The notes below the pieces were generated by a model, which had not been told where the DNA came from, did not search any database, and worked only from the letters and a program-made list of their open reading frames with translations. From Lineus longissimus (taxonomy: Eukaryota > Nemertea > Pilidiophora > Heteronemertea > Lineidae), in the NCBI RefSeq assembly GCF_910592395.1, contig NC_088311.1, positions 20,997,695 through 21,061,694 of the forward strand: 64,000 nucleotides of DNA, given 5' to 3'. Both the position numbers and the translations under genes were made by a program. Shown here piece by piece: positions 50,697-56,800 of the stretch. Positions within the stretch are counted from its first letter, which is position 1. Each line of letters begins with the position of its first letter.

Positions 50697-50801
50697 TCAG
50701 TTGAGCTTCCATGCGTTTCTCATCATGGTCGTAAAGTAAATGTCCTGGTCTATCGATGCGCTCACTCCAGAATAATAGTTAATGAATTCCTCTCGACAAA
50801 T
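50697..50801 (-). CDS. CAPSL: CAPSL-A terminal exon 4 of 4
   Basis: Acceptor TTTTCAG, phase 0. Encodes 34 residues: [20 protein letters not shown], then [14 protein letters not shown] and TGA. It is the most distant and the only one with Ile-Cys at the start. Confidence 0.87.
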
Positions 50802-53800
50802 CTGAAAAATAAGGAGGAATCTTTAAAGGAAATGACAACTATAGCAGTCTGGAAGGAAATAGATTTCCACACTTCGTAGTTTAATATAGATTTTCATTCT
50901 ACTTGTCGTGTTTGTGATGGAATGGTCCATCGTACTTTAAATATAATGACACGACCACAATAACTCAAAATGGTTAGTGTCATGTGTTTGGACATCCATA
51001 TCAGAATACGATGTATGGAAATCCCTCCTCTTCCAGACTGATAACAAGGCAAATTAGAGCCTATTCTGTAAAATTTGATTGCCAGATATAGGCTCAAAAC
51101 TTGTGTAAATCAAAATCAAAGTTTACTCCAGAATCTTTTTAACAACAGCCCTCCTCATGGGCTGAGCACTGCTATTTCAACATACTTTCATAACTAGTCT
51201 GATGCATTTGCATTTCGAAGTCTTCAATCGCAGCAGCGCCATCTTTACATGTAAAATTTCAAGCAGTGTTTCATAGAGTATCTAATTCATGAAGTATACC
51301 AATAATATTTCACTCCAGGAGTTCAATCAAGTCAGCCCCTTGCCATTCAAGACATTTCACTAGAAGTGATCAGTGGCCAGTAATTAAATAAAACAGCTGA
51401 AAAACAAATTTTCTAACTACTTGCAGCTAGTTTTTGCAAGTTACTAGTTTTGAACAAGAATGTTAGTGGGACTACTGCATATGTTAGTTATAAGCTTTCA
51501 AGCAACGGGCACACAATGGACAAAAGGACAAAAGAGGTGAGTGACCAAGCCTAGCCCTGGTCAAAACATTATCTGATGGACAAGTTGCTTCAGTATTAAA
51601 AGTAGTTCCCCTAAGCAACTATCTAACTGTAGCTGACAAGTCAGTGGACATCTTTGAGCACGTGCCCTTCTGACAGCTGCGCAGAGAACATAAAATTGAC
51701 CACTGTAGCAAAGGAAATGAGTTGAAAGTATGCCGCCACCAGGGATATATAGCTTTACCGACACCACTATAAACATCTCACGTCATGTTTCAAGGACATA
51801 GGTTTTAAGGCTAAAACTCCTGGCACCAATAAGTTAGTATTGTCATGTCCCACAACTTCCAGCAGTTCACATGGACACCGCCAACATTTCATCAGCAGTC
51901 TACATGTAATTGGTTTGGAGAGTTTATTCACATTATTGTGGAAGCAAAAGACAACACAATGAAGCCAACCCAGTCACATGCAGCCATGAAGCAATTAAAA
52001 TTTCACAAAATCCATGAAAAAGCTATACAGTTTTAAACAAAGTTAAATTGTACATAAACAAGCATGCACAATTGTACATCAACAAGCATGTAGAAAAGAT
52101 CTTCAGGATACCCAAAATAAAAAAATTCCTGATAAAAACTTTTGAAAATTAAAAATGTTGAAAGCTTTTAAAAAATGAAAAAAGTTAAATAATCACAGGT
52201 AAAATTAAATTTTCAATAGAGATTTTAAAAGGGGATTCATTTTTAAATGTAGGTTGGCAATTTTAATTGATGAAAAGCCCCACGCAAATAATTTTTGTTC
52301 ACTGATGGAAACCATCTTTCAAGTCAAAATATTACAACTGTAGGTTTGTAGTTGCACACAATCAAATTTTTCAAAACTTGCACAACAATTTTAAGTTTCT
52401 GAAGGAAAAATTTAACGTTTTGTAAAACTGCAATGAACAAAATGACCGCTAAATTTCAACTCTCACCACTTTGAAACAACTAGATATCGTTTCTTTGGAT
52501 AAACTTATGCTATCAACATGTACACAGGCAACCTGCTCACCATAGCAAGGATATTGAACAATAAGGCCAAATGAAGATCTTTCCATTTTCTCAGAGGAGA
52601 CATTTTTCTCCACGAAAGTTCCTTTGACAGGATGTCATAAGTAATAAATCTGATTACAAAGCAGAATTGGGTTTCTAGCGTACACGCTCGGGGGCCAACA
52701 TAATCCAAGATTTTCAAAGGGGGTTCATTTTTGAAAGATATTTTAATGAAATAATCTTGTACACTCATCACGTACATGAGGTGTCAAACTTACAGCAGAG
52801 AATGTTTCTGAAAACACACACAAAATATGAAAACCCACAAAGGAATTAGATCTAAATTTGACCTTAAAACATCAAAGACGGATTTGATAGAAAGATACCT
52901 ATGTTCTCAGGCTAATCAAACCGTGTGTGGTATCAGCCCAACTTCCAAGCATTCCTCATCATTAGGTCAAAGTACACATCACTGTCTATAGATGCACTAA
53001 CACCTGTGTAATAATTCAAAAACTCCTCCCGTGTAACCTGGTTAAAAACACAACGGTGGGATGGTTAAGGGTTAATTGCACACTTGGTTAGAAAAGGATC
53101 TCCAGGAACTAGATTGAGTCTCGAAAAGCCAAATTCCAACATGGACAAATTATATTGGTTTGATAACAAAATTTGCTGAAAAAGAGAAATAAACCGCCTC
53201 TCCCCTTTCCATTTTAAAACACATCATTCTTTAAGGCAAATCTTGGACAATTTCAGATTTTCTGAAAAGCAAATAAGGCTTTGGAGGACATCAATGTATT
53301 AAGACTACCAGTTCTATTACTACTGGGCATTTTACCATTTTCAGAAGGTGACAGTATCATTGTGAGCAACAATATAAAAATTGATATCACTTTTTTATAA
53401 CTTCTCCCACCCCAAGATGATAGACAAATGCCACACCACTGGCTGTGCCATTCAGACAACACTTACGCATTCATTGCCATGACTCATATTTGTTGCTCAA
53501 CTCCAAAAAATTTTTACTGAAACTGAAGCCCACATGATGCAAGCACATCCCTTTTGAAAATATCCATCTTTGGATAACGGTACGGCACGGAGTGTTAGGA
53601 AAGACATCTATATGAACAAGTTGGTTGACTACAGTACAATGTACACTAAATACCTATTTCAATCTCCAGGCACTAAATACCTATTTCAATCTCCAGGCAC
53701 TGCGCATCATGAGATCAAAATATGAATCGCTGTCTATTGACGCACTGACACCACTGTAATAATTCATAAATTCCTCCCTCGACACCTATTATAGTGGAAA

Positions 53801-56800
53801 TAATTCGGTAGCTGTTATATATTTGGAGAGAAATGATGCTCAGAGATGATAATGACTGAACGTTAAGAACCCTCAAATGTTCCAACGGCTCAAGTTATCT
53901 GGACTGCAGGAACTTTTGGGCACGAAGTCATCATTTTGCACTTTCTAAGAGGATCGGCAGAGCTAAAAAAGCATGAATGTCCTTTTTTTAAAGGCTGTCC
54001 CAAAGACGCATCTGAAAATGCACAAACATTATAGGAACTGTTTGTGTACACTTCTGGATGATTTCTATTGCAGCCTCTGCTTCAAATCCTGAACTATCTG
54101 CCTGGCAGTTTGTCCTTCCAACTTGGAGAAATGAACCAAGGGCCACATTCAGAAATTTCTAGGAACCCCTCTGCTAAGCCCATAAACCACCTAGTACAAA
54201 TCTCAGTAGAAATCATTAATATTATCATTACATACGAATAGTTGAAGCAATGCTACTGTTAGAAAACTATAATAGTCTGGACAGAGACCAAAATACTGAG
54301 CAACTAAGTATAAGCAATTATCAGGGTTAACCCCATTTGTACAATTGTGTGCACTTTTGTTCTGTTGTATATTTTGAACATATGTTTATAATGTAACACA
54401 AAATGTGTGTTAGTTGACACTTTTACAATGATCAATTTACATTAAACACATGATTATAGTGAACAGCTTTCCAAGTCCATTGTCAATAACACAATGCACT
54501 GTATTTTACACTGGATCCAGTTAACTTTGGATACAGAGAAAAGTTTCTTTCTCCTAAGGGGGTTCAGTGCACCCAGGTTCCACTGTGGTTATTTTTTGAT
54601 TACTTCGTATTGTACTTAAATCTAAGAACAAATCCGACAAACCAGGGATGAAGCAAATCGCTGCCAAAAATGTTTATCAATCAACAGAGATAGTGTACAA
54701 ATTGCACAAAAATTAAAGGAAGCAGCCCTGCAATATATTACAGAAAAAAATACCTATTATAGTTTCCAAGCATTTGTCATCATGAGGGTAAAGTACTGGT
54801 CCTGGTCAATGGACGCACTCACACCAGTATAATAATTCATGAATTCTTCTCTTGTGACCTAGTCAAAAAATAGCTGGTAATTACCAGATGCAACTGTACT
54901 TGAAATAATTTGACATTCATTTATAAATTCATTTTACAGTCAAGGGAAGGAACCATATCATACCGACACCAGTCACTAGTCGGGCCATTACCTTATGAGA
55001 AGCCCATCATGAGGCGGTGTTATTTTGGAAAATACGACGAAAATGAGGCGCTCGGAACTTTTTCATAGTGCAGCAGCTTCCTAAAAACACATACCTTTCC
55101 ATCCGCCTCGTTTGGCGTATCAAACCTATTCAAAAATTCCGTCAAGATTTGGTCCTCATCCATCTCTCCATTGAGATATTTGGGATTATGCTTAACATTG
55201 TAGACACCTTTTAGATCTTCGACTGTCACCACACCATCTCCAGTTTTGTCGAGTTTGTCAAATGCTCGGTTGATGATGCTTTTTCTTGCCTGCGACATTG
55301 GCGGCTGAAATGGACACAAGTTCCAAAGGTAAAAATTGCAGCTTCTGTTTATTGTGCAATATCCTCAGAAATAAGCCAGATTAGCTGTCTTTAAAGGAGT
55401 ACGCCTTTCTTAAATACTAGTGGGCCAGGAAAATAGAAATGTAATTCTACACAATGCCGAAGTGCAGATATCATGCATGCAAATTTGCTGAAACTTGGTT
55501 TTTAACGTTGGGTTTATTGACCGATTGACTTTGCTTCAGCCAGATCGATAGGATGAAGACATTGAAGAAAATAAGACATCATTATCCAATTTCTGATCTG
55601 GAAAACCTTCATCCCATATTCAATCTCACCCCGACACTCCAAAATCATCAAGAAACCTTACCCGTAATGACTGTAAGAACTCATCAAAATCAATGCTTCC
55701 ACTGTGGTCTTTGTCCACTTTATCGAAACATTCCTGCATTTCCTGGTTAGTCATGTCAACCTTGCACTCAGTCAACCCCTTCTTGAACTCAGAAAAATCA
55801 AGGGCCTTGTCGCCATTGTCATCCATGATCCGGAATTTTCTGAGGAAGAAAATATAACATTTTTGAAACTTTGTATAACATTTTAACAAGATCAACCCCT
55901 CCATAAATTATACAGGCTCCTTTCAGCACCATTACGCAGTGAAGACCACACCCAGGCCTTAGCATCCAACTTAAGAAAACAAAGGCAGTCACTTTTTTAG
56001 GCCTTACAAAGAATGATCAGATAGATGAGAGCATAGTCAACAGTAAGGCAAGTCCAAACTTACTACTATTGAAAAATCTGTTAGTAATAAGTTGCGTGTA
56101 CACCACAAAATATTGGTAGACCAATTGCACGTACACCACCACATTGCCGCGACAAATTTGTTCGGCAATCCATTGCCGGTACAAACTGCAGGGCGAATTT
56201 GTCCCAACAAGCTTGATGGTCCAAATTCGCCCGGCTTGTTAAAAGCTCGGCTTTGTCGTCGTGTACGCGCTAATGGATCGGCAATTAGCTAGTTAGATGG
56301 TTCGGCGACAGACGGCGCTTTCGAAATGGCGCTTTCTGCGCATGCAATTTATTGTTTGCGTGCCATCTGTTGCCGGATTTTATAACTAGCTGCAGTGGTG
56401 GTGTACGTGCTTGGTGGATTTTCGATGGTGCGGCATTGGTTCGCGAACCAAGATTGGCGGTCCATTTTCAAGTGGTGTACGCACAGCTATTGTGTTACTA
56501 ACACTACAGATTTTTCATTGGGGCTTAATCATGGTTTTTTGCTATTTGCTACATGAACACAACAATAGTCGAGTAGGAATACTAGGAGGGCAAAGAAAAT
56601 CTGGATTAAATAATCAATTGATATCACTTCACTATTGAAGTCTCACAATCACATTTTCTCCAAAAGTATTAATGTGCAGCCGGCCAGTGTAACAAACATA
56701 ACCTAAGATAGTTTAATGTGTGTCTAGTGACGACTAATACATCATGAAAATATACATTCACAGACAAACTCACCGACACTGATTAGTCACATGTCAACAG

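What the first reader, a model, noticed from the sequence alone, without database searches (positions are those of the whole stretch)
50697..54858. Four tandem, homologous, in-phase last exons in a CAPSL gene
After three common exons there are four terminal exons, each with an acceptor, phase 0, 33-34 codons and its own stop. All keep REEF-NYY-GVSASID-D-YF--MM--AW. The splice junction cuts EF-hand 4, so each choice changes the second half of that site and the C-terminal helix. All four are intact, which points to selection rather than decay. I know of no description of a calcyphosin last-exon cassette.
Basis: partly seen in the sequence, partly recalled or inferred. Interest (0 to 1): 0.87.

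Follow-up and report, generated by a model that had tools for sequence, protein, structure and literature searches.

The report
Four alternative endings of a calcium-sensor gene
A ribbon-worm gene for a calcium-binding protein carries four intact, related versions of its last coding exon, and database proteins from a clam, a shark and several fishes suggest that the same gene has alternative endings there too.

Summary
In this Lineus longissimus (nemertean) window the CAPSL gene on the minus strand has three common exons and four homologous last coding exons. Each has an acceptor, phase 0, 33-34 codons and a stop. Synonymous sites between them are saturated (pS 0.80-1.08) while pN is 0.11-0.24, so all four have long been under purifying selection. 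A database protein, 'calcyphosin-like protein isoform X1 [Lineus longissimus]', equals exons 1-3 + copy 4c exactly. No call shows use of the other three.

Additions: (1) a neighbouring CAPSL paralogue (P0175) has a single last exon. (2) The first three copies carry weak TAG|GTATNT donor-like sites 0-34 nt after their stops, and no AATAAA/ATTAAA lies between the 4a stop and a point behind 4c; they may be internal exons sharing a 3' end. (3) The EF-hand 4 glutamate is constant; 7 of 11 variable positions lie in the last two helices. (4) Protein pairs identical upstream and different in this exon occur in one shark, four fishes and the clam Mya.

The kind (tandem alternative last exons) is known; CAPSL looks like a new member, not described in the paper listings seen.

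The parts
57293..57426 (-). CAPSL exon 1 (start codon; phase 2 donor AT|gtaagt)
   Evidence: Spliced translation equals P0001 exactly; donor rank 13 of 1367 GT sites
55662..55839 (-). CAPSL exon 2
   Evidence: Spliced translation equals P0001; donor rank 5 of 1367
55095..55304 (-). CAPSL exon 3, ends at EF-hand 4 loop position 7 (DGK), phase 0
   Evidence: donor AAG|gtatgt rank 10 of 1367
54757..54858 (-). Alternative last coding exon 4a: [33 protein letters not shown], stop TAA
54748..54753 (-). Donor-like site TAG|GTATTT 3 nt after the 4a stop (function inferred)
53681..53785 (-). Alternative last coding exon 4b: [34 protein letters not shown], stop TAG
53675..53680 (-). Donor-like site TAG|GTATTT directly after the 4b stop; repeated at 53653 by an exact 27-nt tandem duplication (53644-53697); function inferred
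52933..53037 (-). Alternative last coding exon 4c: [34 protein letters not shown], stop TGA; used by database isoform X1 (P0001)
52893..52898 (-). Donor-like site TAG|GTATCT 34 nt after the 4c stop (function inferred)
50697..50801 (-). Alternative last coding exon 4d: [34 protein letters not shown], stop TGA; no TAGGTAY behind it, so probably the true 3'-terminal exon (inferred)
   Evidence: strongest acceptor of the four copies, rank 12 of 1093
63679..63891 (-). Exon 3 of the tandem CAPSL paralogue (P0175); the earlier part of that protein is not in this stretch and presumably lies beyond the window
63136..63237 (-). Single last coding exon of the paralogue: [33 protein letters not shown], stop TAG; donor-like AAG|GTACAA 17 nt on (63118)

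Best explanation
This is a functional splicing cassette. One CAPSL pre-mRNA joins the phase 0 donor of exon 3 to one of four homologous exons. Each supplies the end of the EF-hand 4 loop, the following helix, the C-terminal helix and its own stop codon. Shown: the anatomy, selection on all four exons, and one database isoform (4c). Inferred: 4a, 4b and 4c are internal exons whose donor sits just behind the stop, so that whichever is taken splices on to a shared downstream 3' end (most simply exon 4d), while 4d alone is the terminal exon. By the 50-55 nt rule (recalled, worked out mainly in vertebrates) a stop within about 35 nt of the last junction would escape nonsense-mediated decay, whereas including two copies would leave a stop more than 100 nt upstream of a junction, so doubly spliced messages could be removed. 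Effect (inferred): the Ca2+ scaffold is held constant while the surface of the last helices is swapped, giving isoforms with different partners or placement, probably in cilia.
For: pS 0.80-1.08 against pN 0.106-0.239 for all 6 pairs of 4a-4d; 0 of 20,000 random placements reach the observed protein identity in any of 6 pairs, and differences are concentrated at codon position 3 (15-22 of 24-39 per pair). P0001 'isoform X1 [Lineus longissimus]' is identical to exons 1-3+4c; its cluster counts 3 member sequences. TAGGTAY occurs 10 times on the minus strand of 64 kb, and 4 of these 10 lie within 45 nt behind the stops of 4a, 4b (twice) and 4c; P of about 4e-7 for 3 of 4 exons, but the motif was picked after seeing it and the exons share ancestry. 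No AATAAA/ATTAAA between 54757 and 52747. Same-species protein pairs with 0 differences in the preceding 100 residues and 5-10 differences in the last exon: Heterodontus, Amia, Sander, Betta, Triplophysa, Mya.
Against: No RNA read or junction was available. The identities of the 3 members of the P0001 cluster were not shown; some may be duplicates or differ elsewhere. The donor-like sites score 3.0-3.8 bits, well below the gene's own donors (8.8-10.3); a site scoring 3 or more falls in 34% of random 45-nt stretches, and 4d itself has one scoring 3.8 at 50635, 61 nt behind its stop. Behind codon 33, 4a and 4b still match at 28 of 60, so their shared donor may be leftover likeness rather than selection. 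The 4b acceptor is weak (rank 194 of 1093), though exon 3's own acceptor is similar (rank 178). The missing poly(A) hexamers over about 2 kb could be chance (about 2.8 expected by my arithmetic from the densities, so roughly a 6% chance of none).
Confidence: 0.72

Rival explanations
1. Four true alternative terminal exons, each with its own poly(A) site; choice is made by competition between splicing and polyadenylation, and the TAG|GTATNT sites are unused.
For: 4c is followed by ATTAAA at 52747 and AATAAA at 51928, and 4d by ATTAAA at 50065. The donors are weak, and an equally strong donor-like site lies behind 4d. 4a and 4b share likeness behind the coding part (28 of 60).
Against: No AATAAA or ATTAAA between the 4a stop and 4b, or between the 4b stop and 4c. 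TAGGTAY recurs behind three of four stops although synonymous sites are saturated. Non-canonical poly(A) signals were not scanned.
Confidence: 0.27
2. Remains of serial tandem duplication of the whole CAPSL gene: last exons of lost copies stay downstream of a surviving gene, and only one is used.
For: A second CAPSL gene lies about 5.7 kb upstream on the same strand, so the locus does duplicate in tandem.
Against: blastn of exons 1-3 against the window found, besides themselves and the paralogue's exon 3, only matches of 12-18 nt at chance level. All four copies are open and constrained at saturated synonymous divergence, which unused relics would not show.
Confidence: 0.08
3. All four exons are spliced but the variants are functionally equivalent; copies persist by dosage, robustness or gene conversion and no isoform-specific role exists.
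For: The positions that vary among the Lineus copies are those that vary across the whole family (Mann-Whitney P = 1e-4), and those in the last helix lie mostly on one face, as expected of exposed, freely varying sites.
Against: Four copies kept under purifying selection to synonymous saturation argue against pure redundancy. In jawed vertebrates the two exon types keep different residues from shark to birds at positions 19 and 25, with the caveat that I assigned the types by eye.
Confidence: 0.3

Closest known systems
Serpin-1 of Manduca sexta and relatives (alternative exon 9; Pteromalus PpSPI1 exon 8)
   Same: Many homologous exons near the 3' end with common 5' exons; each choice swaps the carboxyl-terminal part of the protein. 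Passages seen in PMC5691223: 14 copies of exon 9 in MsSRPN1, 4 in B. mori, 16 putative isoforms of PpSPI1.
   Different: There the variants change the reactive loop of a protease inhibitor; here a Ca2+-binding scaffold is kept and the last helices change. Whether the serpin exons carry the stop and a donor behind it was not checked.
GNAO mutually exclusive final exon pair (7-8) in vertebrates
   Same: Duplicated final exons conserved across vertebrate clades, changing a C-terminal part that meets partners (passages of PMC5896119).
   Different: Two exons per unit and two variants; a G protein alpha subunit.
Drosophila pip and PGRP-LC tandem terminal exons
   Same: Mutually exclusive tandem terminal exons or 3' variable regions; competing RNA structures reported for PGRP-LC (passages of PMC9013439).
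   Different: Other proteins; competing RNA structures could not be tested properly here (one sequence only).
Gnathostome CAPSL last-exon types A and B (database isoforms)
   Same: Same gene family, differences lie within the same last-exon stretch, and 8 of 11 variable positions are shared (hypergeometric P = 0.0014).
   Different: Two types instead of four. In a tree of 33 residues whose support values were not read, the Lineus exons lie among invertebrate sequences and not with A or B, but they do not form one group either.

Membership tests
Calcyphosin-like protein (CAPSL) | Full-length similarity to solved calcyphosin-like protein and calcyphosin | tested here: met
Calcyphosin-like protein (CAPSL) | EF-hand pairs | tested here: met
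   PF13499 E = 3.3e-22, 2 stretches
Calcyphosin-like protein (CAPSL) | Ca2+ binding at EF-hand 4 | not testable with these tools
   Loop position 1 is Pro (P168) by hand numbering, position 12 Glu in all four variants; binding needs an assay
Tandem alternative (mutually exclusive) last exons | Tandem homologous exons in the same phase, each with acceptor and stop | tested here: met
Tandem alternative (mutually exclusive) last exons | More than one copy used in mRNA, one at a time | not testable with these tools
   Only isoform X1 (4c) seen; its cluster has 3 members whose identity is not shown
Tandem alternative (mutually exclusive) last exons | Each copy under purifying selection | tested here: met
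Tandem alternative terminal exons in the strict sense | Each copy followed by its own poly(A) site | tested here: inconclusive
   No AATAAA/ATTAAA behind 4a or 4b before the next copy; candidates behind 4c and 4d; rarer signals not scanned

The most novel reading that the evidence does not exclude
The last exon of CAPSL is a recurrent, perhaps ancient, isoform switch of ciliated animals: duplicated and kept in jawed vertebrates (types A and B from shark to birds), in a clam and fourfold in a nemertean. Stop-then-donor exons share one 3' end, and decay of doubly spliced messages helps to enforce one ending per message. The switch retunes one face of the C-terminal helix of a ciliary Ca2+ sensor.
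Probability: 0.35. Interest if true: 0.78.

Novelty: new member of a known kind. Interest (0 to 1): 0.6.

Why it matters
CAPSL-like proteins turn up from sponges to birds in the lists. The human gene has been associated with a retinal vessel disease (PMC11392532, start of abstract and one passage seen), and relatives sit in ciliary doublet microtubules of protists. If the last exon is a repeated target of duplication in distant animals, with the variation focused on the final helices, it marks that helix face as a likely place where CAPSL meets its partners. It also predicts isoforms that could be overlooked in studies of the gene. The four-copy nemertean locus, next to a single-ending paralogue in the same window, is a ready natural comparison.

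Tried and rejected
Own-genome search for further CAPSL cassettes: the genome search did not complete in any of 11 tries, so the rest of the genome was not examined. Genomic DNA of other nemerteans, molluscs or vertebrates was not examined either; all cross-species evidence is from proteins.

Competing RNA structures or docking sites: repeats in 49600-55400 gave 7 inverted pairs, none of which recurs before each exon; one (50119-50143 with the exon 3 donor at 55084-55108, 25 nt, 80%) was judged, without a shuffle control, to be possible by chance and was dropped.

A further or degraded copy: none scored near the five in 64 kb. Read-through between the two CAPSL genes: P0175 ends in the paralogue's own last exon, so no support.

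Shared variable positions in Lineus and vertebrate pairs (P = 0.0014) are weakened as evidence for a shared function, because the same positions vary across the whole family.

The exact A/B split with support 0.955 is partly circular: I assigned the types by eye and left out 4 ambiguous rows (Lampetra, Lepisosteus, Erpetoichthys, Polyodon). In the run with 54 rows (5 Lineus exons and 49 proteins that I chose from the 174 then held) the type A sequences and those 4 rows group together, but type B is not one clade (Amia, turtle and bird B sequences fall outside the main group), and the Lineus exons are scattered among invertebrate rows. The pair Mya P0143/P0144 differs only in the last residue and was not counted. 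The Heterodontus pair also differs in the first 20 or so residues.

The structure search did not list 11yj (library up to April 2026), so the assembly that holds that chain was not identified; its 40 chains suggest a large complex, which is inference, and its organism was not shown. The main text of PMC11779644 held no CAPS, CAPSL or calcyphos-. One search (CAPSL with doublet microtubule) found 1 paper, a cattle fertility study, listing only.

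Full report
Where and what. The window belongs to Lineus longissimus or something indistinguishable from it here. The spliced translation of exons 1-3 plus copy 4c is letter for letter P0001, named 'calcyphosin-like protein isoform X1 [Lineus longissimus]'. The upstream paralogue's exon 3 + last exon form the end of P0175, 'calcyphosin-like protein [Lineus longissimus]'. Both are listed with a longest contig of 25,598,605 bases. The genome paper PMC8593623 lists chromosome 4 at 25.60 Mb (passages seen).

Anatomy. On the minus strand, exon 1 is 57426-57293, exon 2 55839-55662 and exon 3 55304-55095. 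Then follow 4a 54858-54757, 4b 53785-53681, 4c 53037-52933 and 4d 50801-50697. The protein is 207 residues with 4a and 208 with each of the others. The four copies and the paralogue's last exon are the only high matches to a profile built from them, in all six frames (scores 145.2-152.4 against 24.6 for the next place).

Selection. Nei-Gojobori on 33 codons gives pS of 0.80-1.08 (saturated) and pN of 0.106-0.239 for the 6 pairs of 4a-4d. The 4 pairs with the paralogue's exon give pS 0.81-0.92 and pN 0.133-0.240. Random placement of the observed number of differences gave 0 of 20,000 trials as similar in protein for each of 6 pairs, and kept the frame open in 25-37% of trials per pair. The copies are therefore old and have all been constrained. 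By pN, 4c is the nearest copy to 4a, to 4b and to the paralogue's exon, fitting an ancestral-like or default role (inference).

Splice signals. Acceptor ranks among 1093 AG sites of the scanned region: 4d 12, 4c 39, 4a 97, 4b 194; exon 3's own acceptor ranks 178. TAG|GTATTT follows the 4a stop by 3 nt and the 4b stop by 0 nt (repeated 27 nt on by an exact tandem duplication), and TAG|GTATCT follows the 4c stop by 34 nt. TAGGTAY occurs 10 times on the minus strand of the window, and four of the ten are these; the motif was chosen after seeing it. Against this: the donors are weak (3.0-3.8 bits against 8.8-10.3), a score of 3 or more is found in 34% of random 45-nt stretches, and 4d has a site scoring 3.8 at 50635. 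Flanks of 60 nt upstream of the acceptors match at 13-23 of 60, but behind codon 33 4a/4b match at 28 and 4c/4d at 24 of 60 (other pairs 9-19), so leftover likeness could explain part of the shared site between 4a and 4b. The paralogue has AAG|GTACAA 17 nt after its stop and an acceptor-like site before 62938, suggesting a 3' UTR intron; that is inference. No AATAAA or ATTAAA lies between 54757 and 52747. I therefore favour internal exons with a stop just before the donor and a shared 3' end, at lower confidence than the cassette itself.

What the choice changes. An AlphaFold2 model of P0001 (58 sequences, mean pLDDT 84.2, pTM 0.71) has helices at 177-189 and 194-205 in the last exon. Eleven of 33 aligned positions vary among the four copies: 175, 176, 181, 185, 193, 195, 198, 199, 202, 203 and 206. 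Seven of these lie in the two helices. The five in the last helix are one-sided (3.3% of subsets of that size are as one-sided), and the 11 positions are more variable across the family than the other 22 (P = 1e-4).

Other animals. Three searches had 855, 1220 and 191 hits, of which the best 120 each were listed; 274 different proteins came back, and 248 contain the GVSAS-type motif and could be split at the exon boundary. Same-species pairs with 0 differences in the preceding 100 residues and 5 or more in the last exon are: Heterodontus francisci (10), Betta splendens (8), Triplophysa rosa (6), Amia ocellicauda (5), Sander lucioperca (5) and the clam Mya arenaria isoforms X3/X2 (5). That is 6 species. 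Isoforms merged inside database clusters and unlisted hits cannot be seen this way, so it is a lower bound; no exon coordinates were seen for these species. In jawed vertebrates two exon types recur: type A with T at position 19 (14 of 14) and type B with L at position 25 (16 of 16) and S or N at 19 (16 of 16), with types assigned by eye and 4 ambiguous rows left out. In the tree with 54 rows the Lineus exons lie among invertebrate sequences, not with A or B, and do not form one group. Independent amplification is the simplest reading, but 33 residues cannot settle it.

Novelty. No paper describing CAPSL last-exon variants stood out in the listings of searches (3 papers; 0; 11; 10 of 2,454 listed, none of those 10 holding 'calcyphosine'); the library is open-licence PubMed Central only. 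For PMC11392532 on human CAPSL, the start of the abstract and one passage were seen; a word search of its main text gave 0 for exon and isoform, and splicing is mentioned only for a variant. Homologous alternative last exons are known from serpin-1, GNAO, pip and PGRP-LC (passages). Since database isoforms already exist for several species, the data are public but seem unremarked.

Noticed in passing
window 63136-63891 (minus): A second CAPSL gene in tandem, about 5.7 kb upstream of the first, with a single last exon in the window; its protein P0175 has no isoform label.
   Followed up: yes
window 53644-53697: Exact 27-nt tandem duplication at the end of exon 4b that doubles the end of the coding sequence, the stop and the donor-like site.
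   Followed up: partly
   Followed up: partly
P0002, P0035, P0045, P0012 (scallops): Scallop CAPSL isoforms fall into two C-terminal kinds (..NAWKL and ..NSWGV) in different species; may be another last-exon pair.
   Followed up: no
window 588-1784 (plus): Galactosyltransferase-family ORF (PF01762, E = 1.4e-38).
   Followed up: no
window 5020-7104 (plus): TRIM-like ORF with RING and B-box.
   Followed up: no
window 23261-25054 (plus): ORF with a FLYWCH zinc finger and a sub-threshold OTU match, perhaps of mobile-element origin (origin inferred).
   Followed up: no
window 40093-43413 (minus): NCOA6-like coactivator ORF (PF13820, E = 9.5e-28), downstream on the same strand.
   Followed up: no
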